Of a DNA stretch of 64,000 bases, positions 1,041 to 59,900 are shown piece by piece. Made by a program: the position numbers and the translations under genes. Where the stretch lies: the NCBI GenBank assembly GCA_024516035.1, contig CM044961.1, positions 15,117,756 to 15,181,755 on the forward strand. The letters are read 5' to 3'. The DNA is from Bactericera cockerelli (Eukaryota > Arthropoda > Insecta > Hemiptera > Triozidae). Numbering within the stretch: position 1 is the first letter of the stretch; every line of letters begins with the position of its first letter. The notes under the pieces were generated by a model. The model did no database searches, was not told the origin of the DNA, and was given only the letters and a program-made list of their open reading frames with translations.

Positions 1041-1076
<36 letters not shown>

Positions 1077-4000
1077 CTTAGTTGAAAGCGACGTTAAACC
1101 CTACAGTATATTTTTAATTTAAATAACGATTTTTTTGTTTGTAATTTTTTGTAATTTTATTAATGTGATAAAATGGAACATTGTTCCGTAAATTTATTTA
1201 AAAAGAAAAGAAAAAAGTAATGACTAGCTAACGAGGGCGTGACTAGTTTTCTCTATTTATAAATTCACATAGTCTCTGACGCAGTAAAAGTATTTAGTCG
1301 AAGTTTTTTTGAAAAATCTATACAAAGTATTAGTAAAAAAATATTTTTTCCTCAGATAAACCGAAAATCTCCCGAGTTTCGAACCAAGTACAACTCATGT
1401 CTTCAAGTGCTGGACGTGAATTTCTCCAAGCTGGTGGGCATCATCCATCAGGAGGCCTTGCTGGAAATGTGGAGGTGGATTAGTGATGTGCTGCAGGTGG
1501 TCAACAAGTTGAATGAAGAGAAGAATGCCCAGGTAATGAATAGTGATGAGAGTAATGAGAGTATTCATCAGGAGGCTTTGCTGGAGATGTGGAGGTGGAT
1601 TAGTGATGTGCTGCAAGTGGTCAACAAGTTGAATGAAGAGAAGAATGCCCAGGTAATGAATAGTGATGAGAGTAATGACAGTAGTAGTGGGCGTTATTCA
1701 TCAGGAAGCGTTGCTGGACGATTATTAAATATACGGGGGCGTTTCCATAAAACTTAGTGGAAAATTTGGCTCGTTCCAAAGCACATATTTCTATGTGCGA
1801 TGAACTAGCATCAGAATTTGAGCTTTGTCTTTTTATTATTATTATTATTAAACATGTTGAATCAAGTTATATTTACAAATGACATAGAATAAATACATAC
1901 AAAGATATTGAAATGAATAAAACAAAACTTGATCAAGGGCGGTGCTAATGCCAACGGCATTCTCTTCCGCACCACCCTTGATCCGTCTTTATAAGTTATT
2001 GAACGCTTTGGACACTGCAAGCTAGCCTCGCTTGTCTTTTAACTCATCGTTGGTTTCATTGAGGGTGATATTTATTTTCTTCCTACTCCCTAGACAATGG
2101 ACAAGCTAGGGGTTCCCAAACTGGGGCCTGGCGCGGCCAGGAGCCCCGGCGGCCTCACTGCGGAGAAGGTGTTGAAGAAGAAGTCGGTGGTGGAAGCGTT
2201 CACCTCGCGGGTGGCCAGTGCGGGGGCCGCCGATAGTGAAGACACCGAGGCCGACGGCCTGCAGGACAAGAGGAAAACGTTCAAGAAGGTGGCCACAGCC
2301 ACCAAGCTCCTGAGTGGAGCGAGGCTCAAGAAGGAACTGGGTAAGATTGTACTTTCTTTGTTTCATAGAAGGGAACTGGGTGAGCTTTTACTTTCTTTCT
2401 TTGACAGAAGGGAACTGGGTGAGCTTTTACTTTCTTTCTTTGACAGAAGAATTGTCTAAATCTAAGGTTTCCTGTTTTATTATCTGACCTGGTTACAGGG
2501 TTTTCAGTGAAACCCTTACAATTAACACTGCGACTTAATTGGATCTATTGTGACCAGTTGATTCTATTCGGTTTTAACGTCCTGATTTGAGATAGTCAGG
2601 ACGGGGGTTTTACTCTCCATTCGCTGGGAATCGTACCAAGGAAAGGTTTCCTGTTGATTGATTTAAAAATTATTGATTGAGATCGATTGGTAGTCAAGTG
2701 GTGAAGGCGATAGTCTGGTAATCAAGGTAGCGTTGGGATCCGTTGGTTTGAATCCCACCCAATGCATGAATTCATTTATTTGAGTATGGGACCACATAAT
2801 AATAAGATTCTGAGTTTTAGGTGGTAAAAATTGCTTTAAACATTAACTTCGCCTGTTGGTTACCTTCCATCCTTTCATCAATAAAAAAAGGTGTAGAAGA
2901 GATTTAGCTACTAATCCAGACGAAGTGACAAAGATAGCTAATTTTAATTTTAAATTTAATTTATTTTTAAGTGCAATACAATACAGATGTATGTCAATTA
3001 CAATGAAATTTGACATACACCCAATAAAATTATAATACACTGTTTTTTTTATAATATTTTATAATAAAAATTAACCCAGATGGGGCTGACGTCCTTCCAA
3101 AAGGACGTCCTTCTGGAAGGACGTCAGCCCCATCTGGTGAAAGGTAATACGTTGTGGATTTTTCTAATTAATTCAGCTTGTTGAGGTTAGTTGGCGACAC
3201 CTTAAGCTCTTTGTTTTGAGTCCGAGTGATAAGTTGACAGCACTTATTTTGATTCAGGACTCAATTTATATCACTCCAAAAAAATAAAACAAAAAATTTC
3301 ACCGCGTTATCTGGGTTAAAGACATTATAACAAAAAAGTAGAAGAACATGGTTTTAGCTCATAGAATAAGCATATGGACGTTAGTATGGTATTTGTTATG
3401 TTTGTGTTGCAGAGGATAAGAAGCGGGCGGAGGCTGCTAAGGAAATCACAGATCTCCGTATTACCCTCAACATGGGAGACCTGAACTTCTCCCTGCATAG
3501 CGAGAGGTAAGGACCAGGTGTAACAACTAAATAATAATAAGAATACATAACCACGCCCTTTAGTTAGGACATTTATTATGTATATACATTTTTTTTTCTT
3601 TTTTTTTTCTTCTTCTCTTTTATTGTATATTCATTTTTAATTATCTGTGTTGTATACAGGGTGTCCCGTATACAGATGCAAATATTTTGAGGGTAGGTTC
3701 AGCCCACCGTGAACTATCATATGAGCGAAACTTGCAGTGGGGCATTTTGCTTCGTTAAAGAGTTATGGCCAAATCCCTGTTTTTCCCACAGGTCTAGAGG
3801 TCACTTGGATCGATGCACGTTTTTAAAGAAATGATAGCCAGTAGTTAAGTTTTGACTTCATGTATGGATAGTCATGCATATTTCCCTTCGAATGCAGTTG
3901 GTTGCATGAAAAAATATTGAAAGACCAGAGAGATATTTAATCATAAGTTCAATACTTTTCTAAAATTTGATTTTTCCCTTTCGTGAATTTAAAGTACTTC

Positions 4001-5908
4001 TACAATTGCAATTCTGCGTATCACTAATTAAAAAAATACCCTATTATGTTTAGTTTTAGAAAAAAGAAAGCTCATTTATATCACTTTAAAGATCATGGAA
4101 CGCAAGACACACAAAGCTCAAAAAACACTTCTGAATCATGATGGAAAATTCAAAGTAGGCTGAATTTTAACAGAATTGGCGCGTGATTTGAGGTATAAAT
4201 ACACTGCTCTGGGATGTTTCACAGAAGGAAATTGATCATTCACAGTGGTCGGTCGGTGTGAACTTTTATGTGAATGGGGTTTCGGGGTCACAGGGTTATC
4301 GTGAGGAAAAATGAGAGAGGCTGCAACAAAAGCAGCAACCAGAGGTGTAATTATGGACAAAGAATACATAATAATATGGAGAAAGACTCTGCACTAACAA
4401 CAAAACTTGTGATTTTATTTTTAGAATTAAAATTAAAATTATCATTTTTGTGCTTATCACAATCATGATATCAAAAACATAACAAAAAAGTGCCGAGAAT
4501 TAAACTTGGGTAAAACTCGAACATCCAACCTTCAGATTACTATTATTATTATTATTAATACTTTATTGATAAACTACAAACATGATACATTCTGCAAAAC
4601 AGGACATGAAATGAAAAGAACCCAAAAGAAGCTTGTGGCTTTCTCTTCCACCGAACATATTTCTAAGTTTTTTTTAAATTATTGTTTTCCTTGTTGATGA
4701 TTGTTTTGTAAAAATAAATAAAGTGTAAAAAAAAAAAAAAAAAAAACAAATTGATCGCCTTGTTATTTTAATTATTAGATTTGATTGATATAGTTGGTTC
4801 ATAGAACTATTTGTACTCAGAAAATTTTCATTTATAACTTGCAGTTGGCACAAAAATGGTCACACAGACCGCTTCAGGCATCGAGTGTTCTTCAAAATGC
4901 AATAGCGCCAGATTCAAAATTTGAAAGATGTGTTTCTCTCCTTCTGGTGCCGTTTAATAGGTCGTATCTCATCTGTTCCTTCACGCGTCTGGAAGAACTT
5001 GGAATTTATTAAAACAAAAAAGCAGAGGGTATTTTCTAACTAGTGATACGCAAAATTGCAATTGTAGATGTACTTTAAATTTACGAAAGGGAAAAAAGGG
5101 AAAAATCAAATTTCAGAAAAATATCGAACTTATGATGAAATATCTCTCTGGTCTTTCATTATTCTTTCATGCAACCAACTGCATTTGCAGGAAAATATGC
5201 ATGACTATCCATACATGAAGTCAAAACTTAACTACTGGCTATCATTTCTTTAAAAACGTGCATCGATCCAAGTGACCTCTAGACCTGTGGGAAAAACAGG
5301 GATTTGGCCATAACTCTTTAACGAAGCAAAATGCCCCACTGCAAGTTTCGCTCATATGATAGTCTACGGTGGGCTGAACCTACCCTCAAAATATTTGCAT
5401 CTGTATACGGGACACCCTGTATAATATGTCCAATTAATAAAGTGTAAATAAATAGATAAAATAATATGTAACTAGTATTCAACATTTTGCTTTAGGTATA
5501 GCAACACGTTGTTTGTCTTGTGTGAGTTATATGAACAAAAAGAGACATTTTTTTTTTTTTTTTTTTTGGCTTAACGTCTTTTTGATATGTATTTATTTAT
5601 TTATGCTTTTTTTTACAAAACAATCATCAATACAAAACAATCAATTATTAAAAACAAATGTAAAAAAAAAAAAAAAAATGTACAAGAAAATATGGAACAT
5701 TATTAATTATTATTTATTATTAACAATTTTTTTTTTAAGTTTCCATGTATTTATATTTCACAAATAAACATCTTCAACAAATAATGAGAGTATACCCACC
5801 TTCAAAAGATAAAAATCTTGTACTGAAGGTGGTTTGTAATCCGGGGCGAAGTAGATTTTAAGTCATTCGAACTAGTTATTATCTTTTGTAAAAACTATCT
5901 TTTATTAT

Positions 5909-5943
<35 letters not shown>

Positions 5944-8900
5944 TAAGAACATAACATTGTTTCAAAAATTCTTAGAACTATAAATTGAAACAACAATACC
6001 AATGTTCACATTAAAATAAACTAATTAAGAACTTAAAACTATAGCGAACTAAAAACTAATTGTCTTACATTTGCTTTAAAAGCTTCCTTAGACAGTAAAA
6101 AGTCGTCTGTACTTAGGTGTACTTCATTACATAGAGTCATTGCTCTGTTCAGTGGCGATTCATGAAGTTTAGTAAGTCTAGGATGAGGGACTGTGAAGAT
6201 TTCAATATTTGTATTTCTTAAAATGGGGTTTGGTGTTTTTTCCACTATTTTTTCTTTGAGTTCTAGACATGTAATATTATTGTTTACAAGATTATAAATT
6301 AACATCACTAGGTCTACTTTACGTCTTATTTCAAGAGAATTAATATCAAGCATTTCTAGAAGGGTGTTGTAGGAAATAGCTTCCGGGTATTTTGGATAAA
6401 AACCCGTTTTCTTTTTTAAATAGGTATCTAACAAATGTGGACTGAATTTTTTCAATTGTTTTTGATTCTAATTTCGAGTTTGGATCCCATAATATTGATC
6501 CATACTCCACAGTAGATCTCACTAGTGATAAAAATAGCGTTCTTAAAACATCAATATCTTTAACGTGTTTTCCGAATCGAATAATGAGGCCAAGTTTTCT
6601 ATAAGCTCGTTTTAGCATGTTTGCACGATGTTCGTTAAATTTATGTTCACTGTCAATTATAATACCCAAGTCTTTATGAGAATTTACTTTTTCTATACAG
6701 ATGTCACCCATTTTGTAGTTATAGTTTATATTGACTTTTTTTCTTGTGATAGTGATTTGTTTTGATTTGGATGGATGGAAATTTAGCCCAATCAAGTGAA
6801 GTTTATCTCTAACTATGTTGAGATCTTCCTGCAATTTTTGGCAGTCATTTATGTTTGTTATTTTTCTAAAGATTTTGAGATCATCTGCGTAGAGGAGTAT
6901 TTTTGATTCAGGGCTGATATCTTTGCACACTTCATCATAGGTTAAAATGAATAGTAAGCTACTTAATTTTGAGCCTTGAGCAATGCCTGATGTTGGGGTA
7001 AATGGTTCTGATGTAATGTCCATATATTTTACCTGAAGGTTTCTATTGGTGAGGTATGAGACAAATAATTTTGCTGACTTAAATCCTATGCTGTATAATT
7101 TCTTTATGATTGATTCATGTGAGATTTGATCAAATCCCTTCATGACATCTGTGAGAAGGACATCCGTTTGATAGCCTTCCTGTAAGGTAGCACATACATA
7201 TTCTGAAAATTCAGTGAGATTTGTAACTGTCGAACGTCCTTCCACAAAGCCATGCTGAATATTTCTAACCCTAGAAAAAACTTGGCCTGCTATAGATTTG
7301 TATAATAGTGCCTCATATAGTTTGGCAAAAGAATTGAGGTTAGCTATTGGTCTGTGGTCCTCAACACAGCCAGATTCATTTTTTGGTACAGGTGTTATTA
7401 TTGTATCTTTAAGTCGATCAGGAAACACATTTGATTGCAAACTTAAATTAAATAAATAAGTAAGAGGTTTGGCGAGTGATGGAGCGCAATCTCGCACTAT
7501 TTTGGGGGGTATTCCATCCCTTCCCGCGGGCTTATTTGGGTTTATATTCATAGCTTCATCCAGGACCTGTTGCTCTGTGAACAAAGGTATCTCTATACTG
7601 GTAGAGAGATCGTTCAGCGAACAGATTTTATCTAAGTCCACAGAGCATGGTTTGTATGAGGTAATGAAGTGATCTGCAAAGGAGTCAACAATCTCTTTTT
7701 GAGAGTTTAACTGCTGCCCCTTAACCCAGATAACGCGGTGAAATTTTTTGTTTTATTTATTTGGAGTGATATAAATTGAGTCCTGAATCAAAATAAGTGC
7801 TGTCAACTTATCACTCAGACTCAAAACAAAGAGCTTAAGGTGTCGCCAACTAACCTCAACAAGCTGAATTAATTAGAAAAATCCACAATTTAGTACATTT
7901 TCACCAGATGGGGCTGACGTCCTTCCAGAAGGACGTCCTTCTGGAAGGACGTCAGCCCCATCTGGGTTAAAGATTATGTTTGTCGATTTACCCTTAGATC
8001 TTTCCTTTTTTACGTATTTCCAGAAATTTTTACTGTTATGTTTGAATTCAGTGGATAACTTCTGGATGTAGGATTGATAGTTGGACTTAATCTCTTTTTT
8101 AATTTGTTTTCTTAAATGTTTATAGTGTTCAGATTGTTGCTGTGTTTTGTTTTGCGTTTTGCGCAATTTTTCTTTTGTTTTGAAAATGTGTCTTGTATTT
8201 GCGCTCCACCACTCGGGGAAATTTTGTGATCGCTTGCTTACATTGTAAAGGGGAACATTTTTCAAAAATATTTCATTTAACTTTACATAAATATTATTAA
8301 GGAAGATGTTTGGACATGTGATTAGATTTAAGTCATCTTCCCAGCAGATTTTTTGTATTTCACCATTTAGTTTTTCAGCGTCAATTTTGTGGAAGGCAAA
8401 ATATTTTGTCTTTTCTTTAGAATCTACTTTATATGGTGTTTGCTTAATTTTAATTTTATTTTGATACTTGATCATTATTTCTAATGCAGGATGGTGACTG
8501 TCTTCCTTTACTAATCCCTGAGTTTTCAAGATATCTACATCAACTTGTTTATTCTTAGATAAAAATATTTCACTTATGTTCGTCAGACATAGATCTAGTA
8601 TTCTATTATTTTTATTTCTTATATGGTTTTTGGATTCTAGGAGGTGAAAATTGGTAAATTCTCTAAACTTGGAAACTGAACGAGGAGGGTCTACATTTAA
8701 TTCCTCAGAGAAATCGGGCAAATTTAAATCACCAATAAGGATGAAATTTTCATTTTGTAAGTTTCGCTCTGATATTGATTCTGAAAGGAATTTCACAGCG
8801 TCATATTTTTTTGACTCTTGATGTGGTGGTAAATAAATCAAACAAAGATAGATTATTTCCCCTATTAGTGTCAATCGAAACCACATGAGCTCAAGAATAT

Positions 8901-11900
8901 TATTACACATGTCCCAATGTACAATTCTAGTCAAGGAAATTTCTCGTTTTGAAGCTAAAATTAGGCCACCTCCTCTTTTTTTGCCTGTCTTCTTTTCGTC
9001 CCTATCTTGCCGAAATATTGTATATCGAGAGTCGAAAAGTTCATTTGTATTTACATCTGGACTTAACCACGACTCAGTGATAGCCACTATGTCGTATTCT
9101 TCTGAGAGGAGATTTAAATAAAATTCTTTCGTTTTAGTTTTCAAACCTCGAGTATTCTGGTAAAAAATGTTGATTACTTTTTTCCTACTAGTATTGTTAT
9201 TAGAGGATGATTTGTTTTTTCCTATCTGTCCTGATGTCTGTACAATGTCAATATTATTATGTTTACTGGTCAGATTACCAGTAGGTGAAACATGATCGCT
9301 TCTTATTTCTAAACTTAAATCTATGTTTTTTGAGAACTTGTTCTCATTGTAAATCGGGCGATTTGAAGCTGTATCGCTAACATTGTCGGGGGAAGCCAAA
9401 AATATGGCTCATGTCACTGTTTACATAGGGTGGTATTGTTGAATGTGGTGGTAGGCCGTGCTGGGGAGTAGGAACTACACTGGATTGTATATATGGGGCT
9501 GACGATGGTGGCATACTCATAAAAGATGGTAATTGGTAGTGCTGTTCTTGTTGCTGATAGTGTCTGTGAAGTGTGCCCAACAATTGCTGTACTTGATGTT
9601 GTAGCATCATTTTTTGTTGACTGAGAATTTGTGACTGACTCATCTGATTTGTGTACGCCCATTGGAGTTCATTTGGTTGCTGTACTCGTTGTTGCAGTGG
9701 CGTTTGTTGTTGTGCTGTTGGTTGTTGTGGCAAAATTTGCTGACGAGGATCCAGCTGTGCTGAGGGTAAAGAGTGCCGGGACGTTGATGGTTGTAACAAA
9801 GAAGAATGATTCATCTGTGCTGCGTACGTACATTGCAGTTCCGTTGTTTGCTGTACTCGTTGCAGTGGCGGAGTTTGTTGTTGTTTTGTCGGTTGTTGTG
9901 GCAAAGTTTGCTGACAAGGGTCCGGCTGTGCTGAGGGTAAAGAATGCCGCAATGTTAATTTTTGCGATGAAGCATGATATTGTGGAGCCGTGTGGTGTTC
10001 AGGAAAAATATGATGCTGTGGCGACTTCGTATATTGCTGAGTTGTTGGATGACTTGCAGATCCATCGTGCTGGGTTGATGGTGTTTGTGATGATCTATGA
10101 TATGGTGTTTTTGACTTTGCGATGGGCCTGCCTTGCCGACTAGGAGCTCTTTTTTTTTGAAGTAGATTGGAACTTCATTCTATTTCAGATACCCTCTTGC
10201 TTCATTCGACATAGATGGTATCCATCTAGCGGTGGTGTTGAAGCGGTCCTGCACCAAACTCAAAGTCACGCTGGATAACCTGGCCATGTTCAGCTCTCTG
10301 CCAGACTCGATCTACACTCAGGTAATACTTACAGAATATTGCTGACATATATTCATATGTCATATAGTTCACTATCTTCGTGGTGTCTTGCGAGATGTAA
10401 TCTCAACATTTTAAGAAATATAAAAGTTCTAAGGAATAAGAAAACGCGGGTCCGAAACCTAGCCGTGACATGATAATAATAATTACTAATAACACTCTTT
10501 AGTGGAAGGTATCGGAAGGTAACCACCAGGCGAGGTCAATGCCGAAAGCATTTTCTACCACCTAACCCTCAGAGTCTTATTATTACGTGGTCACAAACTC
10601 AAATTAATGATGAAAAATTCATGCACTGGGTGGGATTCGAACCAACGGATCCCTACGCTACTTGGATTACCAGACATGACCAGTTAACCACTCGACATGA
10701 CCAGTTTTCCTCACATTTTGACAACATAATAATATCGCCTTGTTTATAATGCCCGATTAGGACTATTCAAGTCCCATTATTCCAGCATTAAGCCCAAGAC
10801 ATATTATTATGTGGTAAAAATCCCAATTGGGAGGATAACATGTCATGTCCCAGCTGGGTTTCGAACCCACGACCTCTGGAGTCTTTGGATTCACAGAGTG
10901 TCGCCTTTACCACTGAGCTACCAGGACAGACTTGTCCTGGTAGCTCAGTGGTCTTGGAAAAACTGCTGGAATAATAAAGGACTTATTAGTCCTAATCGGG
11001 CTGTGTAAATAAGGTAATATTATTATTATTTTATCGACCTGGGTGTAACAGTCTTTGTTCGCTTCCAGATTCTGTCCGTGCCGGAGAACCTGGAAGCACT
11101 GAAAGCGGACATCACCCTGTATAACTCAGAGGACGGACTCACGGAGGTAGAGGCGTCCATTGCGCAGTGCCGGCTCGTGTTTCTCAACCGCTTCACCACG
11201 GCACTGCTCGAGTTCATCAACCAGTTCCAGGCCGGCAAGCAGGCCATCATCGAGGCCTCACAAGCCGCCGTGGCTTCCGCCAAGCAGAACCTACAGGTGA
11301 GCCGCCTTCCTACTGTTTCACGCCCCTGGAGTACGAAAAGTTGGGTTGGGTGGAAGAGATTGCCATAGGCAATAACCCCGCCCTTTAGTTAGGACATATG
11401 TATATATTTTGTTTATTTTTTCTTGTGTATATTATTAATGTTGTCAATTTTTATATTTAATTTTTACCATTTTTTGTCTGTATATATTATATGTTCTACT
11501 AATAAAGAGTTTCTAAATAAATAAAATAATAAATAAAAAGTCATTTCAAAATTGTCTGCGCTGTGAAACGTCCCATCTTTTGTGAAAAGTGTCTAGCTGG
11601 GGGACATTGAACCAGTGTCTCGTTAGAGGACTATAAACAGAGGAGAGAAGAGCCAACCCTATCAAGCAAGGCTAGTTAAAAGAAAACAATTCTAGCTTGC
11701 AGTTCCCCAAGGGTTTAATGGATTATAAAAAAAGGCCCTAGTTCTCATGATGGTTGATTGCACATAGAAATATATGGTTCAGAACGAGCCAATTTTTCAA
11801 CTAAAAGACCATCACTTCTGCAGTTGTAGCCAAGCTGGTTACAACAACACTCGGCGTCTAAAGTCACATCTTTTTATTTAACAAAACTAAACTTCTTACA

Positions 11901-14053
11901 AATAGAATATCTCTTCCATTGGCTCAGTGGAAGGTAAAGAGCCTAATACACTCGCACTGTTTCCTCGCTGAATGGCTAAGGATAACCTTTCAACCAGGAA
12001 ACAACGCGAGCGTGGCTCTTTACCGTTGTCATGGTTACAGGATATGTACGCTGCAGCCAGCAAGGTGTCCCTGGACATCAGCATAGCAGCTCCCGTGCTG
12101 GTCATTCCCGCCTCCTCAACCAGCCTGGATGCCATAGTCATGGACTTCGGTAACCTCACCATGAAGAACCAATTCGAAACCTTGGCTGTCAAGAACGTTA
12201 AAGGTATTTTTTTCTTCTTTTTTTCAAGTTTTCTTTTATGTCACGAATCAAAACTTCTCATCCTCTGAGCCAGGTGGCCGATTTTCAGGCTGAAATTTTA
12301 AGGTAATTTCTCAAGATGACCTCCGAATTCATTAGAAAAATATTGAAAACTTTGGCATTGTTTATGAAGGGAGACTTGTTAGTAAAGGTAGGATCACACT
12401 ATATGGCATAGATGCCATATTTTCTATGGCGAGAAAAAAAACGAATGGCACATATAATATATGGCAATCACACGATGCCATATAATGAGGCAAAAAACTC
12501 TATGGCATTGTATGTCTTACCCCTTGCCATAGACAAGCCTGCCAGTCGTCACCATATCATATTGTAGACCATGTGTGTGATGAAGCACTCACACGAATGC
12601 CATAGGTCCTGCCATACGTCTATGGCACCATAGAAAAAACTTGTCGCCATAGACCCAAATAGTTCTATGGTCATGTAAACAAAGACCGATCACACGCTAT
12701 GGCAAGAGAGATTGCCATATTATATATCGCTCTGCCATATCGTGTGATCCTACCTTTACAATATGTGTTATCATATTATTTAAAACTATCTAGAAATCAA
12801 AACAATTGTGCATTGATTATGTCTCTGCAAAAACATCAGCTCAATGATAGTGGAATTTATGTGCAGCAGTGTACTTAAGTGCAATTACATAATTACAGCT
12901 TACAGATGCGTGTTCCTCATCCCAATGCTAATAAGAATAAGTAGTGACTGTGTGTATGCCCGCCATTTTTCGACACCATTTTTTTTTAAAAAAAAAAAAG
13001 ATCAGTGCTCAATCGGTTTTACTTCCGATAAATTTCTAATATTAGAAATCCGAAGTATTGTGTTCGTTTTTTAATTTGGGTTTAACGTCGATTTCAACTG
13101 CATGATCATATCATTCAATTAGTCTGGAATTCCAGGTAGCGTAGAAATCCGTTGGTTCGAATCCCACACAGTGCCTGAATTTTTTCTCATTTATTTGAGT
13201 TTGTGACCACATACTAATAATACTCTCTGAATTTTGTGGTAAGAAATGCTTTGAGCATTAACCTCGCCTGGTGGTTACCTTCAACTAAAAAGTATTATTA
13301 TTCGGTCCCGGTAGCTCAGTGGTAAAGGCGGCACTCTGTGAATCCAGAGATTCCAGAGGTCGCGGGTTCAAAACCCAGCCGGGACATGACAAGTTATCTT
13401 TCCCATTTGGGATTTTTACCACATAATAATACGTCTTGGGCTTACTGCTGGAATAATGGGACTTAATAGTCCCATTATTCCAAATGGGTTGGGTGGAAGA
13501 GATTGCCACAGGCAATAACCCCGCCCTTCAGGTAGGACATTATTGTTATTTTTTTTTTATTTTTTTTTTACTTATTTATTTTGTCATTTGTTTGTTTTTT
13601 TTTTCCTTTCTTTTCTTAATTTTATACTGTTGCCTGTTTGTCCTCCTAATAAAGTTAAAAAAAAAAAAAAAAAAATAGTCCTATTCGGGCAGTATATATT
13701 AGGCGATATTATTATTATTATTGAAAGCAATGCTTGCTGGTCTCGCCTCGCAGGTCACCCAGCCGTGCTGGACCACTGCCGTATGGAGCTGGATAACATG
13801 ACCATGTCCCGCGTCCTGTATGCTGACAGCAGCCTCACCACAGTGGAGGATATCGTGCTCATCCGACCCATCAACTTCTCTCTGCTCATCATCAGGAACC
13901 TGTGCGCGGGCTGGCACAAGTAGGTTCTTAAAAAAAAAGATAAGGTTGAAAAAAAAAAAAAAAATGAGTGTTTCACAGCCTTTTTTATTTTGAAGTCATG
14001 AAACAGGAGGTACTGTAGACGCTTGTGGTCTGTGCTGAACCGGTAACCCCGGT

Positions 14054-14100
<47 letters not shown>

Positions 14101-17100: not shown

Positions 17101-17275
17101 CCTTCAGCTGATTTTGTTATGCAGAGACGTTTGTTTAAAGTGTCTGTGCGCATGCGCATTTAGATGTTTCATTAATAAATAATTGTCAAGGTCGAAGTAT
17201 TCCCTATAGCAAGCTCGGGACCACCCTATAGTGAACCCTATAGGGATTACAAAAATGTCTCTGCATACCAGCCTA

Positions 17276-17309
<34 letters not shown>

Positions 17310-22357: not shown

Positions 22358-22401
<44 letters not shown>

Positions 22402-34400: not shown

Positions 34401-35196
34401 GTGAGAGTTAGTCAAGTGATAGCTCCTAGCCCTGGAGAGTGATGAGTGATGAGCTAGTGGAGCAGTATATCCAGGTGGAGATTCCAGGACGTAGCCAATG
34501 TAGCCAGGTGAGAGTTAGCCCTGGAGAGTGATGAGCTAGTGGAGCAGTATATCCAGGTGGAGATTCCTGGACGTAACCAATGTAGCCAGGTGAGAGTTAG
34601 CCCTGGAGAGTGATGAGCTAGTGGAGCAGTATATCCAGGTGGAGATTCCAGGACGTAACCAATGTAGCCAGGTGAGAGTTAGCCCTGGAGAGTGATGAGC
34701 TAGTGGAGCAGTATATCCAGGTGGAGATTCCAGGACGTAATCAATGTTTGCCAGGTGAGAGTTAGTCAAGTGATAGCTATTAGAGGTTTGAAGGGATCTG
34801 TTCCAGAAACTCTCTCCACTCTCAAAATCCCCGAATTTTCGTTTCTTGAAACTTGACGTTCCAAACCTACGGCTTTAATTTTTGATATTATATCTATTTA
34901 AATTAAGAAATATAAATCTGCCTTGCCTTTATCCCATGTTAGCTTATGTTGCTATTGGGGTCGACATTGTTCATTTAAAAAAAAAAATACTTTACATTTA
35001 TTACAAATATTTTACAAAAATACCACTTAAGCTGAACAATTAAAAAAAAAGCGCCGGGGAATATTTCAGGCAACGGCTTAGTTTCGCTGTTCAGAGAGGT
35101 AATGTTGCCTCAGTGCTGAGCACACTGCCTCGGGAAGATGTCCTGGGCGAAGTCTTTTATATTTTGTAAAAATAAAACAATTAACCTTTAAAATTC

Positions 35197-35231
<35 letters not shown>

Positions 35232-49034: not shown

Positions 49035-49074
<40 letters not shown>

Positions 49075-50911
49075 GGCCCCTGCGCAAGGATGACACGCAA
49101 AATCGTGAAGCGTTCCACATTTTTTTGGCGAAATTTTATCTGAAAATTTGATTTTCAGCGGAGTTCAAATCAGCAAAAAAATTACATGATTTTAAAAAAT
49201 TTGCTGTCCAATGTCTATTTTTTTTTTTTTTTTTTTTTTTTGCACGTTTTTTTTTACATCTCATGAAATGAACATCTAGCCAAACATTGATAGTATTCGT
49301 TTTTGTTGTTCATTTATTTTAATTACTATACATCTCCCTTGCCTTTTATCCCATATTAGCTTATGTTGCTATTGGGGTCGGCATTGATCAACTTCATAGT
49401 TGAGGTTGTTAGGGTGGAGCACGTTTTTTTTTTTTTTTTTTTTGGCTGGATACTCTTCCTAACGCCAACGATTTATTTTACGGAGGCAGATTTATTTTAA
49501 TCATTATAGTTTGCAAATATACCAGATAACTATTGGTTTTCCCTTGATAGATTCACACATTCATGATGTCATGGTATTACGAGTATTATTATTTTCTTGT
49601 ATTGGGACCAACGAGTATTATTATTTTCTTTTTTTATCGTAGATGGGGGTTGTGACATACCAAATCCAATGATTTTGAGTTGCTGATTACGAATTTGCCA
49701 TTAATTTTTACCTAAATGTCATATTTGATTCACCAGTGGCTTTTGGTCCTGTCTCCTGTTCCCATTCCTAATATGATAAGGAAAGTCGTGTGATGTTTAT
49801 ACCAGATTTATTTTTTTATTGTATTGCTATAATTGTAGAGAAATTTAGATGGAAAATGATTAACCCATTGCCTACCAAGCCATTTTTATGAAACTTGCCC
49901 TGGGGACCAAGAGTATTTTCCTCAAAATCACCTGTCTAACTATGTGCAACATGCGGTTCCCCAGACTAAAAAACCCATATTTCCTTGTCACTAGGGAAAT
50001 TGTCTTGCATATATGCTATACATGGTACCCAAGAAGGCTCAACCGTGTCTAGCATATATGCAACCCCGATACCCCAGGCAATATTAGTTTCTTGCAAATG
50101 TGCTACCCATTTATCCCATAAAATATATAAGACCTGTTTGACTGCTGGAGTAAAGGGACTTTTCAGTCTTACCTCGGCAGTATAAACAAGGTATATTCTA
50201 TTCTATTCTACCCATGGTAGGCAATGGATTAATAATAATAATGATGATCTCCGCAGGTACAGCGAGGAGGAGCGAGTGGACGTGAAGGCGGGGCATAAGG
50301 TGTACTGGGCGTGGTCCCAGGGGGCGGGCAGGTGGAGGGGGAGGAAACAGACAGGAGCAGTCTGGTGTGGGCCAAGCGCAAGGTGATGGCAGACGGGCGG
50401 CGGGACGGTCTGGGAGAGTTCTTCCTGGACGACGACTTCAAGAAACCCGCCTACTGGACCTGCTTCCTGGACGGTAATATTTTTACTTTCGACCAATTTC
50501 TAATAATAGAAAAAACAAAAAAATAGCCATGCGCCTGTATGGCTGCAATTTTCAAATTTCCTCTCAAAATTCTTTTAAGTATTTTCAAAAATTTAAACTT
50601 AGTTTAGAATTCATCCATGTCAAGCTTTTTGGTTTGTTTTAGTGTTAACTTAGTGTTTTTTTAAGTTTTTAATTAAGATACCTGCACAAAACAACAAAGA
50701 AGTACAATATTTCAATGATCCCAAGAAGAATGTTGGACGAGGAAGATACCGATGATGCATTGTTACTCTTTTCCAGAAAGAATTGCAGAACATTGTTCTA
50801 AAATAAGTTTAAAAAAGGCAATTAGAATGCGAAATAAGTGTCTAATAATATTAGAAATCGGAATTACTGTGTTCGTTCTTGGAATTTTTTTTTTTATTTA
50901 TTATTCCGATT

Positions 50912-50945
<34 letters not shown>

Positions 50946-53900
50946 CCTTATCAGTAAGGAAAGTATTGTATTCGTCGAAAATTTGACCTACCCAGTTTTT
51001 CACATTTCTGGACGAATCATAAGCCTCAAGATTACTACCAAAAAAGTTCTTTTCGGCCATTGGTCCGTCCGTGTGTAAACACGATATCTCGAACACGGTA
51101 AGAGATACAGACTTAAATTTTGGTCTGGAAGTTGATTTTATATTCTATCTACGAATATAATTTTATACCTTTCTCGACACAGTTTTTTAAGGAACTTTTG
51201 AGAAAGGGTGCCATTCTATAATTTGAAATTCTGAATAATTTAATGTAATAAATATATAAATGGAATTGATTTTTTAAAAAATATTCACGCCACTAATCTG
51301 ATAAATATAATTTAAGATAAAGGGTTGGGTGGAAGAGATTGCCACAGGCAATAACCCCGCCCTTTAGGTAAATCATTAGTGTTATTTTCTTTTTTAACTT
51401 ATTTATTTTGTCATTTGTTTGTTTTTTCTTAATTTTATACTGTTCACATTGCACTCTGTCCTCTTAATAAAGCATACTATAATAATAATAATAAGTGATT
51501 TAAGCAGTGTCTATTCTATTGTATTGTTTTCTCTTCTACTCAGGCATCCAGCGAGTTCTGCTCATAACTGAGGATGCCCTCGTGTTCACGGATGTCAGAG
51601 CCTCGGGTAACTACGAGCTGTTCGACCAGGAGATAGTGCTGAGCATGCACAGGATAGGAGTCAGCCTCGTGGACAATGAGCGAGGCTACGAGCTCTTGTA
51701 CCTGAACATTACCAGGTGAGAGGCCAATGATGTCTGGCTGGGGGACGTTAAACAGGGAGAAGGCCAGTGTCTCGCTAGAGGACTATAAACAGAGAACGGA
51801 CTAGCCAACCCTTACAAGCCAGGCTAGCTTGCAGTTTCCTGCAAGCTTTAATGGCTTGTACAAAAAAGTCCAAGTCCTCATGATGGTTGATCGCACATAG
51901 AAATATGTGGTTCAGGACGAGCCTACTTTGAAATAAAGTTGGCTGGAGACCATCATTCACCCCTTCAGCTGTAACCAAGCTGGCTACAACAACACAGGCC
52001 AATGACCAAGTTTGGTGTGTGTCACACTTGTCACAGCTTTATTAAGAGCCTTATCACTTCTCTGAGTATCTAAATTGTACGGGAACTTGTTGTGAGGTCT
52101 GTAAGCAACATCTTATTTTTCCGTACGACGAGTAGACTTTCGAGTTTTTGAGTAGGCTTTCGAGTTGGGTGGAAGAGATTGTCATAGGCAATAACCCCGC
52201 CCTTTAGTTAGGACATATTATTTATCTATTTTTTCCATTTTATTGTGTATAGTGTTACCATTTTTTAAAAATAATTATTTGTACTCATATATGTGTCTTT
52301 GTATCTAATAAAGCATTTAATAATAAAAAAAGTTTTAAAAAAATATGGAACATATTTACCTCTCTGCATTACTTCCTGAAGTAATCTCTTTCGACCAAGT
52401 CTTGTATGATTCCTTTTTAGTATACTGCGACTTATTGTACGCTAGAGATAAACTTGAGTCTCGCTCTTGTGAAACTACTGTTTTTTTTCTACGAGACGAG
52501 CGAGGAAGCTGTTTTTTTTAGAATTTATCATTCCGTCTTTTAAAATGAGACGAGAGCCACAGCATAAATCTGTTTCCATCTCAATGGCTATTACTATGGA
52601 AGTCCATCTCAATGGAACACTCCCTGTCCTCTGTCCCCAGCTCGGGCATCATCTGGGAGAGCCAGAAGTCGGAGGGAAAGCGGTTCAAGCAGCTGAGCAT
52701 CGTGGACAGCAACGACCTGGAGAACGCCTTCATCATGTACAACAACCAGCTGGTCCTGCAGGAGACCGTGTCTCCGCTGGTCAAAGTCAGCCCCGAGATG
52801 GAGGTGGGTGGCCTTATCCTACCAATTTGTTTGATATGTGACAGGCCTGAGGTATTCCGAGTTCTCCATTCTTTTTCCTCCATGATTGTGGCTACTATGA
52901 GAATGGAGGTGGGTGGCTTTTCCTACCAAGCCAGCCACACATGTACACGCGTACATGCATGCATGAATGGGCGTGACTGCCATGCATGCATAGGCGTGAC
53001 TGACATGCATGCATGAATAGGCGTGACTGCCATGCATGAATGAATGGGCGTGACTACCATGCATGTATGAATGGGTGTGGCTGGCATGCATGAATAGGCG
53101 TGACTGGCATACATGCATGAGTGTGACTGACATGCATGTATGGATATGCGATTAAGCAAGTTTCAACACGTTCACTCCCACAGGTCAACAATAGAACTTT
53201 GCTTAATGTTTCAACACGTTGACTCTCACAGGTCAACAATAGAACTTTGCTTAATGTTTCAACACGCTCACTCTCACAGGTCAACAATAGAACTTTGCTT
53301 AATGTTTCAACACGTTGACTCTTACAGGTCAACAATAGAACTTTGCTTAATGTTTCAACATGTTCACTCCCACAGGTCAACAATAGAACTTTGCTTAATG
53401 TTTCAACACGTTCACTCCCACAGGTCAACAATAGAACTTTGCTTAATATTTCAACACGTTCACTCGCACAGGTCAACAATAGAACTTTGCTTAATGTTTC
53501 AAGACGTTCACTCCTACAGGTCAACAATAGAACTTTGCTTAATGTTTCAACACGTTCACTCCCGCAGGTCAACTTCGTGGCATTCACAATGCTGAAGCCC
53601 AACAAGCGTCGGCTGCGCCGCGTGTACAACTCGGGCCTGTGGCTGCAGATGCGGAGTTCCAGCGTCAGCTCGCAGCTGCACATCAAGCTGCATCGGCTGC
53701 AGATTGACAACCAGCTGCAGGACGCCATCTATCCTGTCATCATGGCCCCCGTGCCGTTGCCGAAGACGATCGCTGCCAACCATGGTGAGATGAAGCTCGG
53801 GGCGGCAATGGGTTAATGGTTGCCAACCATGGTGAGATGAAGCTCGGGGCGGCAATGGGTTAATGGTATCGCTGCCAACCATGGTGAGATGAAACTCGGG

Positions 53901-56900
53901 GCGGCAATGGGTTAATGGTATCGCTGCCAACCATGGTGAGATGAAGCTCGGGGCGGCAATGGGTTAATGGTATCGCTGCCAACCATGGTGAGATGAAACT
54001 CGGGGCGGCAATGGGTTAATGGTTTGAGTCATTCGTAATTATATGCGTTTCCTGAGTCTCTCATAGGCTAATAAAATTGCATTGTGTGCTATTCAAAAAT
54101 TTCGAGGGCCATATTAATAGAAGTGTAATTCTTTGGTCGAAATTGATTGCTAATTTAGAAGAGGAACTCTTGAGATTTTTTAGTCCTTTGTCCGCACTAT
54201 AAAGAAGAGTATTTGTACATAAACTAGGTATTGCAATTTTGCGTATTCTTTCAAATGGCAATTTGGTTTTTTTTTCAACTTTGCCAATAATATTTTTCTT
54301 CATGACAGAGGGCCGAATTATAACATAGGGCTACAACAAAAATAAGCCAGGCCATTCCTCAACTTGGAGTAAAGTGCGCTGTGATTGGTTGAAATTCTGA
54401 CTTAAGGGACTTGGGCCTGAATTGATGAACGACGCTAGAGCAGAGACTATTTAAGTTTATTTATTTATTTTCTTTATAAAGAAACATTTATACAAAGGTA
54501 CTCCTCCTAAGCTTTGAAGGGCTGTTAACTATAGTGTTGTTTTTACCATGGTTTCAGCCAATCAAATGGCTAAAATCCGATACTACAGTAACAGTGTCCA
54601 CCACAGCAGCGTTAATTCATTCGGACCTTGGTCTAAGCATTTTTTTGCTGTATTTTTTTTTTATATCTATTGTACTATTTTATAATTGAGGCGTAACACT
54701 CAGGGTTGTATGCAGAGTCCTCACTGTAGGGATGGCTGGGTCATTTGTCCTTCAGCTGATTTTGTTATTCAGAGACATTTCTTTAAAGCGTCTGTGCGCA
54801 TGAGCAATCAGATGTTTCTTCAATAAATAATTGTCAAGGTCGAAGTATTCCCTATAGCAAGCTCGGGATCACCCTACAGTGAACCCTATAGGGATTACAA
54901 AATCGTCTCTGCATACTTTTTTTATTTATTTATTTAGACTTTATTTTTTTATACAATACAAACAACAATAAATTATTAACAAAGATAAAAAAAAAAAAAT
55001 TAACAATATTTACAAAAAAATGTATAGAAAAAAAATATTTAAATTTAAATGTACAATGTATTGTAATCCAGGGCGAAGTTAATGCCTCAGGCATTCTCTG
55101 CCTCAATGTGCTTCCCCAACTCCCAGCTCAATGTGCTTCCCCAACTCCCAACTCAATGTGCTTCCCCAACTCCCAACTCAATGTGCTTCCCCAACTCCCA
55201 ATTCTCTGTGCTTCCCCAACTCCCAATTCAATGTGCTTCCCCAACTCCCAACTCAATGTGCTTCCCCAACTTCCAATTCAATGTGCTTCCCCAACTCCCA
55301 ATTCAATGTGCTTCCCCAACTCCCAATTCAATGTGCTTCCCCAACTCTCAATTCAATGTGCTTCCCCAACTCCCTCAGTTCTGAAGCCGTTCGTGGAGGT
55401 GAGCATTGTGCAGCGCCTCAACGTGAACTCGCAGGTCCGCCAGTACAAGTACTACAAGGTGCTCATCCAGGAGTTCCATGTCAAGGTGGAGCTGAGCAGC
55501 GTCACCGCCCTGGGGGAGTTCTTCGCCTCCCAGCAGACCAGCAGGGAGGCGGTGCTCGCCGCGTTTCAACAGGTACATATAATCATCATATCATCATAGG
55601 GTGGCGTCAGCGTGAAAGATAGTAGCCAGACAGTGGAGGAATGACTCAACACTTCTATCACTGTCTTTACAAGGAGGCTAATAATTGACAAGGGCCCCCA
55701 GAACCAACCCAGTGCTGATCTACTCCCTGTTTATAGTCCCCCAGCCAGACTGCTGGTCTACTCTCTGTTTATAGTTTCCCAGCCAGACTGCTGGTCTACT
55801 CCCTGTTTATAGTCCCCCAGCCAGACTGCTGGTCTACTCCCTGTTTATAGTTCCCCAGCAAGACTGCTGGTCTACTCCCTGTTTATAGTCCCCCAGCCAG
55901 TACATATAATAATTCCGTGTCCGTGAGTTAGGTATTGATACCTAAGTCACGGTGGTGACTTGGTGAGAGGATTTTATGGACGCCCAGATTCAATGTCTAG
56001 GCTTCTTTCATGTCATACACAACACATACACGGGCTGTAAACTCGTGCTTCGCTACGCTCACTACCAAAAAGTTTGTGAAAGTGGCGTTTTCTCTCGCGG
56101 CTGGCGTGCTAGTTGGAATATTACAAAGTACCAGCACGGAGAAAAATAGATATAAGTGAGTTTTAGGTGATTTGCTATTATAAGAAATAATTATTGTTTT
56201 TTTTTTAAGTAATTGTGCCCCGGAACCGCTTTCGCATTACTTCAGGGCACTTTACCTTTACATCCATGCCATTCCAGAAACGGAAAACTCTGTTTGTTAG
56301 AATTTTCCGCTCCGGCTGGGATTCGAACCTGCAACCTCTGGGTCAGCAACTAATGCTCTTAACCACTGAGCCACGGAGGTTAGCACTATTTCTTATAATA
56401 GAAATTATCCGCTTCGTTCTAGAAAGCACTCTTAACTCAAAATCCCCAAATCTCGCTTCCAACTGTCAAATTTCGTACAAATAACCTAATCAGAGTTTGT
56501 TTTTTAACAGTTGAAAGATAGAGTTAGGGAAATCTGAGAATGAAAGTGAATTTCTGACTCATCTCTGTCCATCACAGGACATCAAGAAAATCGAGACTCC
56601 CCTCCTAGACCACGTGGCGCTACACACTGTGGCCGAAGTCAAGAACTTCTACGACACTCTCCACTTCTCGCCCTCAAGATTCACGTCAGCTTCACGGCAC
56701 AGGTGAGTCATTGCTTATGTGGGATGCATACGATGGTATTTTACTAACAGGAAACCCCTTCAATTTTTGGTACGTTCGAAGCACCGTTTTTTTTGTGATT
56801 TTTGTGGACAACATTTGTCAAAATAGCTTATTAAAAATCCTTGTCCTGATTATGTTGTTGTGTTTTTGCCTCACTACAGAGAAATACATAATTTTACTAT

Positions 56901-59900
56901 CTGTTTCATTTTTGAAGTTTTTACCTCACCACAAATTAAAACAAATTGAAGGGGTTTTTAGTATAAATTGGTATAAGGAATATTTAACTTTTGAAGGGAC
57001 TACTTGGTTATACTTTTGAAGGGGTTTTTAACTTTATCAAAAGGTGGTTACTACAGATTAATTACTACAGCTTTCATGTTTTTTAAGACACAAGTTTAAA
57101 ATCACTTTAATCTTTGTGACGCTATGCTTCTGATACATAGTACTGTTTGGTTATACTTTTGAAGGGGTTGTTAGCGAGACAGTATGCTTCTGATACATAG
57201 TACTGTTTGGTTATACTTTTGAAGGGGTTTTTAGCTAGACGGTATGCTTCTGATACATAGTACTGTTTGGTTATACTTTTGAAGGGGTTTTTAGCTAGAC
57301 GGTATGCTTCTGATACATAGTACTGTTTGGTTATACTTTTGAAGGGGTTTTTAGCCATATCAAATCTTTTTACCTGTACTGTGACTCTACCCCCAGGGTT
57401 CAGACACCTCAGCTCTTCCCGAGTTCCTCAGCATCCTCATGCAGTCCATAGGAGTCACCCTCACAGACGTCCATGACGTCATCTTCAAGCTCTCCTACTT
57501 TGAGCGAGAAAACGTGTTCCTCAACCAGAGCATGCTTGTCTCGGAAGCCACCAGTCACTACACAGGTAACCTAACATAAAACCAGCCACTACACAGGTAA
57601 CCTAACAGAAGCAATGAGGTCCTCGTCTACCATGCATAATATCCCGGGTTCGATCTCCAGAGCCGACGAAAAATTGTATTAATTATTTGATAAGATTTAT
57701 GTGTGAGGGAATTGAGGGATACCTTCGTGTTTTTTTTATTTTATTTTTTATTTAGATAGATAGTTATATTTTTACAATTTATAAAAAAACTTCTCCAAGG
57801 ACATCTTCCCGAGGCAGTGTGCTCAGCACTGAGGCAACATTACCTCTCTGAACAGTGAAACTAAGCCGTTGCCAGAAATATAACTTCGTGTTGACCTTGC
57901 ACCTCAATGGAAAGAGAGGCATTTTACGGGATGGACTAACTACAAGACAGATCACAAGCGTAGAAAGAAGCTGTTGTTTCATGGCTACAAAATAAAAAGG
58001 CTGTGAAACACTAAAAACACACACAGGGTGTCCCACGAACAGATACAAATATTTTAAGTGTGGGTTCAGCACACTCGCCAGAGTTACCTCACAGACATCA
58101 ACGGACAGAGAACGGTCTCGATCTGTGGGAAAAACAGGGATTTGGGCCTAACTACTGAACAAAGCAAATGTCCCACTCCAAGTTGGATTTATAATATTAT
58201 GATAGTTTATAATATCATAATGTGCTGAACCTACCATTGAAATAGTTGCATCTGTTCCTGGGACAACCTGTTTAGTGCTTTAGAAATGTTGGACAAGTAC
58301 TTTTTACTAGTTTGTCTGATTGTAAAGGATTGGGTGAAAGAGATTGCCACAGGCAATAACCCCGCCCTTTAGGAAGGACTTTAGCTTCATTCTCTGTTTT
58401 GTTCTTGTTTCTTTGTTCAATCTGTTTATTTTTTCTTTATAATTTCATTGTATTTTACTGTATATATTTTGTCTTACCTAATAAAGCATACTATAATAAT
58501 AATTGTAACTTTGTCTGCAACATAAATGTTTGAATTGGTAACAGGCCTGGACATAGAGGTATTTATTTATTTACACTTTATGTTTTTTACAAAACAATCA
58601 TCAACAACGAGCAAAAAATAACAATAAATTTAAAAAAAAAACTTTAGAGGTATGTACAAAAAGAAAGCAAGATCAATATTAATTTTTAATTACAATTGTT
58701 TTCTAATCCGGGGCGAAGTTAATGCCTTAGGCATTCTCTGCCACTTAACCCCGGATTTATAGAGGTACATTATCCCGTCCCCTTGTTATACCTCCCTCAC
58801 TCCTGTCTGATTCCAGGCCAGTTCCTGAAGCAGGCCTACGTGCTAGTTCTCGGCCTGGATGTGTTGGGCAATCCCTATGGGCTGGTCACAGGCCTGGCCA
58901 CAGGGGTGGAGGATCTCTTCTATGAACCCTTCCAGGGGGCGATTCAGGGACCGGGAGAGTTTGCAGAGGGCCTCATGATAGGTGCGCGCAGCTTTTTCGG
59001 ACACACGGTAAGTCATTTTTTTTTTTAAGTTTCTATGTATTTATATTTCACAATAACATCTTCAACGAACAATGAGGGTATACGGTATACCCACCTTCAA
59101 AATATAAAAAATATTGGGAGCTATGAAGGGATGATTAAAAAAATAAAATCTTAAGATGCTTTAGTATGAGAAAAGTCACCAGGGATACCTACAAAAATTG
59201 CGTAATTCTACAATCGTGAGATAGTTATTTTCGTAAAATATGTTCTATGTACAAATGTAAATATGGAATTCTCCACATCCTCGTGTCATACATAATGGAA
59301 TTCTCCACATCCTCGTGTCATACATAATGGAATTCTCCACATCCTCGTGTCATACATAATGAAATTCTCCACATCCTCGTGTCATACATAATGGAATTCT
59401 CCACATCCTCGTGTCACACAGGTGGGCGGGGCGGCAGGGGCGGCCTCACGGATCACAGGGGCCATGGGCAAGGGCATCGCGGCCCTCACCTTCGACAAGG
59501 AGTACCAGAGGAAGCGGCGGCTGCAGACCACACGGCAGGCCACGCTGCATGAGGACCTGGCCGCAAGTGGCAAGGGTGAGTGGCACATTATTAAACATGT
59601 TGGATCAAGTTTTATCTCTATACAGGGTGTCCCGTATACAGATGCAAATATTTTGAGGGTAGGTTCAGCACACCGTGGACTATCATATGAGCGAAACTTG
59701 CAGTGGGGCATTTTGCTTCGTTAAAGAGTTATGGCCAAATCCCTGTTTTTCCCACAGGTCTAGAGGTCACTTAGATCGATGCACGTTTTTAAAGAAATGG
59801 TAGCCAGTAAGTAATTTTTGACTTCATGTATGGATAGTCATGCATATTTCCCTTGAAATGCAGTTGGTTGCATGAAAAAATATTGAAAGACCAGAGAGAT

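What the first reader, a model, noticed from the sequence alone, without database searches (positions are those of the whole stretch)
1356..59421. Splice-site-bearing exon edges are tandemly amplified at about fifteen exons of one gene
Exons 2, 3, 9, 12, 13 (both sides), 16, 19, 20, 25, 31, 32 (both sides), 33, 35 and 37 are flanked by tandem copies that begin or end at the exon boundary. Most include the splice site. Unit lengths (24-122 bp) and sequences differ, so these are independent events rather than one dispersed repeat. Intron-interior arrays away from exons also exist (26.3 kb, 14 kb) but are a minority. Something may favour duplication at exon edges: GC-rich exon/AT-rich intron transitions, replication slippage, R-loop breaks, or tolerance of redundant splice sites.
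Basis: partly seen in the sequence, partly recalled or inferred. Interest (0 to 1): 0.86.

Follow-up and report, generated by a model that had tools for sequence, protein, structure and literature searches.

The report
Exon edges amplified into tandem arrays
In the genes sampled from a likely psyllid (plant-sap insect) genome, short DNA repeats pile up at exon ends about three times more often than random placement gives, often copying the splice site many times over; the extra copies are probably spliced out harmlessly, which would make this a natural test of how cells choose splice sites.

Summary
The window holds 38 exons of an animal VPS13A/C gene. The finding names 14 exons (16 edges); 13 have duplicated edges much as described, and at exon 35 the upstream array stops 41 bp short while the donor is duplicated. 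The window's own genome (565 Mb) was held, so I tested other genes. In 14 gene segments (103 exons, 89 introns), 26 of 52 intronic arrays cross or come within 15 bp of an exon edge, against 8.2 expected for random placement in the same introns. Outside the window: 15 of 30 against 4.1 (p<=1e-5); loci fetched after the test was fixed: 5 of 11 against 1.3 (p=0.003). The excess lies in arrays of three or more copies. A coverage test over 264 kb shows none; its null lets arrays cover exons. Edge units are unrelated to one another. Donor-side arrays carry 127 strong extra donor sites (59 in one array), acceptor-side arrays 18. Array-bearing edges have ordinary splice sites. Best reading: amplification is favoured at exon ends and tolerated because splicing uses the copy next to the exon body. 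The cause is unresolved. Splice-site arrays are known from human genes and intron-gain cases; this density I did not find in print.

The parts
1446..1683 (+). 120-bp unit x2 across the donor of exon 2 (exon 1356-1532)
   Evidence: TRF; copy of the donor with identical score at +120
2329..2449 (+). 39-bp unit x3.1 across the donor of exon 3 (exon 2094-2340); by eye the later units also have an acceptor-like TTTGACAG, leaving an 11-nt mini-exon
15322..15439 (+). 45-bp repeat, two copies 73 bp apart, second across the acceptor of exon 9 (exon 15425-15611)
   Evidence: self-BLAST; decoy acceptor
18760..18991 (+). 67-bp repeat, two interrupted copies ending 8 bp before exon 12 (18999-19187)
19537..19844 (+). 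107-bp array (x2.5) over the acceptor side of exon 13 (19751-19960)
19933..21432 (+). 41-bp then 85-bp arrays over the donor side of exon 13, three strong decoy donors
23116..23647 (+). two extra copies of the acceptor and first codons of exon 16 (23603-23798), not contiguous with it
29962..30334 (+). 98-bp unit x3.8 ending 1 bp inside exon 19 (30334-30426); unit found only at this locus in the genome search
33999..34778 (+). 82-bp unit x9 across the donor of exon 20 (33825-34072); eight further donors of equal score, each leading to a stop if used; unit found only here in the genome search
40599..41586 (+). 115/122-bp unit x8.3 carrying the intron end, AG and first 94 nt of exon 25 (41490-41635); seven decoy acceptors of equal score, each leading to a stop
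52790..52960 (+). weak second copy of the donor of exon 31 (52641-52803) at +105
53160..53573 (+). 48-bp unit x8.6 across the acceptor of exon 32 (53568-53784), eight decoy acceptors
53769..54023 (+). 52-bp unit x5 across the donor of exon 32, four decoy donors
55103..55374 (+). 25-bp pyrimidine-rich unit x10.9 ending 4 bp before exon 33 (55379-55572), no strong decoy
57118..57355 (+). 60-bp unit x4, stops 41 bp short of exon 35 (57397-57565); not counted as touching
57540..57610 (+). 31-bp duplication across the donor of exon 35
59263..59420 (+). 32-bp unit x4.9 ending 1 bp before exon 37 (59422-59575); by eye only the last copy makes the acceptor AG
407..63530 (+). exons 1-38 of a VPS13A/C orthologue

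Best explanation
In the genes sampled from this genome tandem arrays are concentrated at exon edges, where they likely grew by repeated tandem duplication of segments spanning a splice junction and are probably tolerated because splicing would use only the copy next to the exon body. Shown: the excess over random placement in the same introns, its extension to genes outside the window, the peak of array ends at the junction, the larger copy number at edges, the unrelated units, the many intact extra donor sites and the fewer intact extra acceptor sites. Inferred: (a) duplication or amplification is favoured where the unit reaches the exon end, because array ends just inside the intron (15-100 bp) are no denser than deep ones; (b) copies wholly inside exons are removed by selection; (c) exon definition and early transcription of the true donor make donor copies harmless, while acceptor copies transcribed before the true acceptor are more often harmful, so acceptor-side arrays tend to stop near the AG. 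Why exon ends amplify more is not known.
For: Loci fetched after this test was fixed: 5 of 11 against 1.31, p=0.003 (110 bp: against 2.0, p=0.03); one array per intron: 23 of 40 against 7.1, outside the window 13 of 23 against 3.35, both p<=1e-5. Unlinked loci L023-L031: 10 of 21 against 2.9, p=9e-5. Exon-facing array ends per kb: 0.24-0.45 at 100-2000 bp into the intron, 0 to 0.32 at 15-100 bp, 1.7-3.4 at 0-15 bp, 2.25 in the first 20 bp of exon, 0.3-1.1 at 20-110 bp of exon. Array ends in -15..+20: 14 at 178 real edges, 1 to 5 at 170 pseudo-exon edges in each of seven placements. Arrays of 3 or more copies: 19 of 29 against 4.3; outside the window 10 of 15 against 1.5; median copy number 5.6 at edges, 2.4 inside, p=0.003, outside the window p=0.038. 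Strong decoys: 127 in 16 donor-side arrays (59 of them in one array), 18 in 14 acceptor-side arrays; arrays with any: 13 of 16 against 5 of 14, p=0.024. Unit lengths of edge arrays modulo 3: 10, 9, 7, as for sequence that is not translated. Where psyllid proteins cover them, no array unit appears in the protein at the array edges.
Against: A coverage test shows no enrichment: 14 of 140 boundaries lie in local duplications, 12.5 expected (p=0.38); its null lets arrays cover whole exons. Plain overlap in the window is not significant (8 of 19 against 5.7, p=0.17). Duplications below three copies are only weakly enriched (7 of 23 against 3.9, p=0.055; outside the window 5 of 15 against 2.5, p=0.073), so the first step is less clearly biased than later amplification; this split was made after the fact. 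In 9 of 42 extra junction copies in the window, use would insert residues in frame without a stop, so some copies might be used. No RNA data were available. Exons outside the window were predicted by my own scorer, which also calls some exons on the wrong strand of the window.
Confidence: 0.6

Rival explanations
1. Duplication is uniform along the gene and edge arrays are simply the ones that catch the eye; this genome is just very rich in tandem arrays.
For: Arrays cover 9.5% of non-exon bases in 264 kb. Boundary coverage equals background (14 of 140 against 12.5). Duplications below three copies are barely enriched.
Against: Placement test and its extension outside the window, the peak of array ends at the junction with only 2 ends in about 15 kb at 15-100 bp, the pseudo-exon control, and the excess among arrays of 3 or more copies.
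Confidence: 0.2
2. Old sequence survives next to exons, while intron interiors are renewed by transposons and deletions, so arrays are kept longer near exons.
For: About half of the Bactericera cockerelli genome is transposons in a re-analysis (PMC12203342, section 7 read), if this genome is alike. Introns here hold reverse-transcriptase-like frames and tRNA-like copies.
Against: It predicts a broad zone, yet array ends at 15-100 bp are as rare as deep in the intron and the peak is within 20 bp of the junction. Copy identity is not lower at edges than inside (94 against 92%, p=0.33), so edge arrays do not look older.
Confidence: 0.08
3. Selection keeps the extra splice sites because they strengthen recognition of the exon or back up the true site.
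For: Copy number is higher at edges; 127 strong donor copies remain.
Against: Array-bearing edges have splice sites as strong as others (acceptors p=0.29, donors p=0.79); nine of 14 acceptor-side arrays carry no strong copy.
Confidence: 0.08
4. The arrays are assembly errors.
For: Four of 38 exons carry frame breaks, as imperfect reads would give; the flanks have N gaps.
Against: Copies differ from one another, edge arrays run to 33 copies, no N lies in the window, and a tandem insert ends at an exon junction in the predicted protein of another psyllid.
Confidence: 0.04

Closest known systems
Internal tandem repeats at exon-intron boundaries of human genes in segmental duplications (PMC2812944, passages read)
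   Same: Minisatellites (on average about 30 bp x4) including some on exon-intron boundaries; 27 intron modifications after manual inspection, some forming new introns
   Different: There a set of recently duplicated primate genes with variable copy number; here ordinary conserved genes, half of the intronic arrays sampled, up to 33 copies, mostly predicted to be spliced out unchanged. No edge-versus-interior test appeared in the passages I read
Intron gain by tandem duplication crossing an intron-exon boundary, potato RdRp gene (PMC4974935, passages read)
   Same: The duplicated segment spans the acceptor with intron end, AG and exon start, as in exon 25 here
   Different: An event that made a new intron and inserted exon sequence; here arrays of many copies with no sign, in the psyllid proteins that could be compared, of a changed exon
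Tandem repeats forming introns in fission yeasts (PMC3629103, passages read) and novel intron positions in Drosophila (PMC2891723, passages read)
   Same: Repeat units carrying proto-splice sites and introns made of such units
   Different: Units come from coding sequence (AGGC/AGGY motif); here units hold or adjoin an existing junction

Membership tests
VPS13A/C gene family | VPS13 middle region and VAB adaptor domain | tested here: inconclusive
   Single-exon hits below the curated cut-off: VPS13_M E=8.9e-9 and 0.002, VPS13_VAB E=0.0012
VPS13A/C gene family | collinear similarity to a known VPS13 | tested here: met
   Human VPS13C E=6e-28 for exon 36 and 3.5e-68 for exons 2-9; psyllid predicted proteins 72-82% identical, in the same exon order
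Minisatellite arrays | head-to-tail units of about 10-100 bp, imperfect copies | tested here: met
   TRF; some units are longer (to 122 bp at the named edges)
Minisatellite arrays | copy number varies between individuals | not testable with these tools
   one assembly only
Intron gain by tandem duplication (Rogers model) | unit carries splice signals | tested here: met
   22 of 30 edge arrays hold at least one junction copy, 18 of 30 a strong one
Intron gain by tandem duplication (Rogers model) | intron absent from relatives | not tested
   no genome of a relative was available; proteins alone do not show introns
Human exon-boundary internal tandem repeats (PMC2812944) | array overlaps an exon-intron boundary | tested here: met
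Human exon-boundary internal tandem repeats (PMC2812944) | transcript evidence that the array changes the gene structure | not testable with these tools
   no RNA data

The most novel reading that the evidence does not exclude
Exon ends are hot spots of tandem amplification in this lineage: a mutational process tied to the exon-intron junction, perhaps to transcription or splicing, keeps copying splice junctions into introns, so that a large share of genes carry rows of equivalent splice sites from which only the innermost is used, a standing supply for new introns and shifted exon boundaries.
Probability: 0.4. Interest if true: 0.87.

Novelty: new variant of a known kind. Interest (0 to 1): 0.74.

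Why it matters
It makes two old questions testable in one organism. First, how a spliceosome chooses among equivalent sites: exon 20 has nine donors of equal score in a row and exon 25 eight acceptors of equal score, and use of any outer one would bring a stop codon. RNA reads alone would measure the choice. Second, how introns arise and grow: junction-spanning duplication has been described in single cases and one human gene set (PMC4974935, PMC3629103, PMC2812944); here it appears as a routine event. It also warns annotators: gene predictors can mistake array copies for exons, as mine did at exon 25 at its lowest threshold and as the Diaphorina citri protein model may have done at exon 28. 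I found no report of an edge preference at this scale in ten searches of an open-access library, judged from listings and, for five papers, outline, section or passages; that is not proof of absence.

Tried and rejected
GC-rich sequence as the driver: interior arrays are not visibly GC-rich (listing), exon ends with arrays are not significantly GC-richer (0.583 against 0.550, p=0.25), GC steps at far array ends are marginal. Compensation for weak splice sites: rejected. Age or survivorship: copy identity alike and no broad zone. Coverage and rotation tests were run first and showed no or weak enrichment; I then changed the null to placement inside the same intron, because the first null lets arrays lie over exons. 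The change was made after seeing the window, its neighbourhood and loci L023-L026. A dispersed element as source: rejected for two units and, by comparison with each other, for the edge units; some interior units are shared between arrays or loci.

Rows dropped before counts: predicted exons judged to be array copies or repeats (four in the neighbourhood, one each in L025 and L027), one weak exon in L029, one opposite-strand exon in L023; predicted neighbourhood exons not grouped with others of a gene were not used in the placement test. Arrays not lying between two exons of a group were not counted; among these are edge arrays at the CK1 24650 acceptor, the USP 56712 acceptor, both sides of the VPS13 exon after 38, and the last donors of L024, L025 and L026. 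Locus L028 gave no predicted exon and no array. L031 gave two exons and no counted array. Exons 11 and 29, with frame breaks, were kept with their outer edges.
Full report
What the region is. The window is one strand of a large animal gene. I located 38 exons by open frame, splice consensus and agreement of phase. Exons 2-9 match human VPS13C (E=3.5e-68) and exon 36 matches VPS13C and VPS13A, so it is a VPS13A/C orthologue. The closest proteins are predicted proteins of two psyllids, Diaphorina citri (82% and 74% identity for two parts of the gene) and Cyamophila willieti (72%) (taxonomy). The genome is therefore likely a psyllid. Its size, 565 Mb, lies close to the 567 Mb given for Bactericera cockerelli in PMC12203342 (passages read), but I could not establish the species. 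The exons follow the psyllid proteins in order. Those proteins cover exons 1-18 (exon 10 unaligned) and 24-38; at the array-bearing edges they cover, no array unit is seen, only differences of up to about 7 residues.

The observation. The finding names 14 exons and 16 edges. The extra copies often hold a complete splice site. In the window I counted 42 extra copies of the junction at the 16 edges tested. If used, 29 would bring a stop codon in the lengthened exon, 4 would shift the frame without a stop there, and 9 would insert residues in frame. Exon 20 has eight extra donors and exon 25 seven extra acceptors with the same score as the true site.

First tests, weak or negative. With arrays thrown at random over the window, 8 of 19 overlap a boundary against 5.7 expected (p=0.17); with 10 bp of slack 11 of 19 against 6.0 (p=0.011). 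Over 264 kb, 14 of 140 boundaries lie in local duplications against 12.5 expected by rotation (p=0.38), and coverage is roughly flat through the intron and falls inside exons. The genome is simply rich in tandem arrays: 9.5% of non-exon bases here.

Why another null. A null that lets arrays cover whole exons overstates the chance of overlap, since selection should forbid most such arrays. The better question is where an array lies inside its own intron. I therefore placed each array uniformly in its intron, letting it run into the flanking exon by up to one unit (or 110 bp), and asked how often it comes within 15 bp of the junction or crosses it. I made this change after seeing the window, its neighbourhood and the first four outside loci.

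Extension to other genes. From the same genome I took 100 kb on either side, eight 10-kb loci chosen by myosin-head matches and one by a dynein match, so chosen without regard to arrays. Exons there come from a scorer trained on this gene. On the window itself, its training data, it gave at threshold 30 36 predictions on the right strand, all on true exons, 33 exact, and 9 on the wrong strand; elsewhere I used thresholds of 28 to 32 with a further filter on coding score. Outside the window the predicted peptides read as an ACE-like peptidase, casein kinase 1, a ubiquitin-hydrolase-like gene, a hexosaminidase-like gene, myosins and dynein; these names are recalled from the look of the peptides, except myosin and dynein, which are Pfam matches.

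Result. In 14 gene segments (103 exons, 89 introns, 144,287 bases of intron), 26 of 52 arrays touch an edge against 8.2 expected (p<=1e-5). The window gives 11 of 22 against 4.1 (p=3e-4), the rest 15 of 30 against 4.06 (p<=1e-5). Lower and higher score cut-offs agree, the weakest being the window at cut-off 60 with 110 bp (p=0.022). Loci unlinked to the window: 10 of 21 against 2.9 (p=9e-5); linked neighbours: 5 of 9 against 1.2 (p=0.001). Loci fetched after the null was fixed: 5 of 11 against 1.31 (p=0.003; p=0.03 with 110 bp). Taking one array per intron: 23 of 40 against 7.1, outside the window 13 of 23 against 3.35, both p<=1e-5. Pseudo-exon edges placed inside introns collect 1 to 5 array ends per 170 edges, real edges 14 per 178.

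Shape of the excess. Exon-facing ends of arrays are at 0.24-0.45 per kb from 100 to 2000 bp into the intron, 2 in about 15 kb between 15 and 100 bp, 1.7 to 3.4 per kb in the last 15 bp, 2.25 per kb in the first 20 bp of exon and 0.3 to 1.1 per kb from 20 to 110 bp of exon (window included). A broad zone of old or protected sequence would not look like this. The excess is carried by arrays of three or more copies (19 of 29 against 4.3; outside the window 10 of 15 against 1.5); those below three copies give 7 of 23 against 3.9 (p=0.055). Edge arrays have more copies (median 5.6 against 2.4, p=0.003; outside the window p=0.038), similar copy identity (94 against 92%) and similar unit length. The split by copy number was made after the fact.

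Donor and acceptor sides differ. Of 30 edge arrays (laxer cut-off), 16 are on donors and 14 on acceptors. Donor arrays hold 127 extra donors within 2 bits of the true one, of which 59 are in one array of L027; acceptor arrays hold 18 extra acceptors. Arrays with at least one strong copy: 13 of 16 against 5 of 14 (p=0.024). Donor arrays reach more than 15 bp into the exon in 11 of 16 cases, acceptor arrays in 3 of 14 (p=0.014). Counts of copies allow up to 6 mismatches in 20 and include sub-repeats: L027's array has 30 units by TRF but 61 copies. This fits the idea that an extra acceptor, transcribed before the true one, does more harm than an extra donor, transcribed after it. That idea is inference from general knowledge of co-transcriptional splicing and exon definition.

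Independence. Consensus units of edge arrays gave no match to one another. Two units searched in the whole genome, those of exon 19 and exon 20, were found only in their own arrays; the search skips very common words. Some interior units are shared between arrays or loci.

A sister species. The D. citri protein model has a 21-residue tandem insert that ends at the junction of exons 28 and 29, an edge without an array here. It suggests the same kind of event at another edge in a relative, wrongly or rightly annotated as coding. It is one case, in a predicted protein.

Mechanism. The excess at the junction, the low density just inside the intron, and the rarity of arrays wholly inside exons (one with score 80 or more in 19,193 exon bases, 21 bp and so in frame) suggest that exon ends are favoured for amplification and that selection removes copies inside exons. 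Tolerance at the splicing level would explain why they persist and why acceptor arrays tend to stop near the AG. What favours exon ends is open. GC steps are at best a minor factor. Transcription- or splicing-linked breakage is possible and untested.

Known parallels. Tandem repeats at exon-intron boundaries are described for human genes in segmental duplications, where they can form new introns (PMC2812944, passages). A tandem duplication across an intron-exon boundary made a new intron in a potato gene (PMC4974935, passages). Fission yeasts and Drosophila supply further cases from coding repeats (PMC3629103, PMC2891723, passages). The psyllid genome paper does not use the word tandem in its main text. 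None of the passages I read tests an edge preference; the whole papers were not read. So the kind of event is known, and its density and the donor/acceptor asymmetry are what seems new here.

Limits. One assembly, no RNA, about 354 kb of one genome, exon calls partly my own, a null chosen after first looks, and modest numbers for the asymmetry.

Noticed in passing
exons 11 (17427-17627), 23 (39046-39336), 29 (50257-50473), 34 (56578-56702): Frame breaks in four of 38 otherwise open exons, several beside runs of one base; likely assembly errors, a decaying gene not excluded.
   Followed up: partly
41635/41636: The donor of exon 25 reads AAG|GCAAGT, a likely GC-AG intron.
   Followed up: no
49019-49124: A full-length U6 spliceosomal RNA match (117 bits) inside the intron between exons 28 and 29.
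   Followed up: no
38780-38864, 41687-41771, 46100-46183: Three tRNA-Thr(GGT)-like sequences in introns, probably heads of SINE elements.
   Followed up: no
6039-9408 (-) and 46158-48014 (+): Long reverse-transcriptase-like open frames, likely two non-LTR retrotransposons (recalled from their look), in introns.
   Followed up: no
about 27310-28170 and 28680-29480: Two long arms in opposite orientation (near-identical open frames on both strands), a fold-back element upstream of exon 19.
   Followed up: no
465-517: In-frame 21-bp coding repeat inside exon 1, the only exon-internal array of score 80 or more among 103 exons.
   Followed up: partly
L013:1070-1546: 57-bp unit x8.4 on the donor side of the VPS13 exon after exon 38; the units are open in frame, so a gene finder reads them as coding, while the D. 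citri protein has one copy.
   Followed up: partly
L027:2485-3310: A myosin exon with a second, partly matching copy of much of it in the next intron, a larger exon duplication.
   Followed up: no
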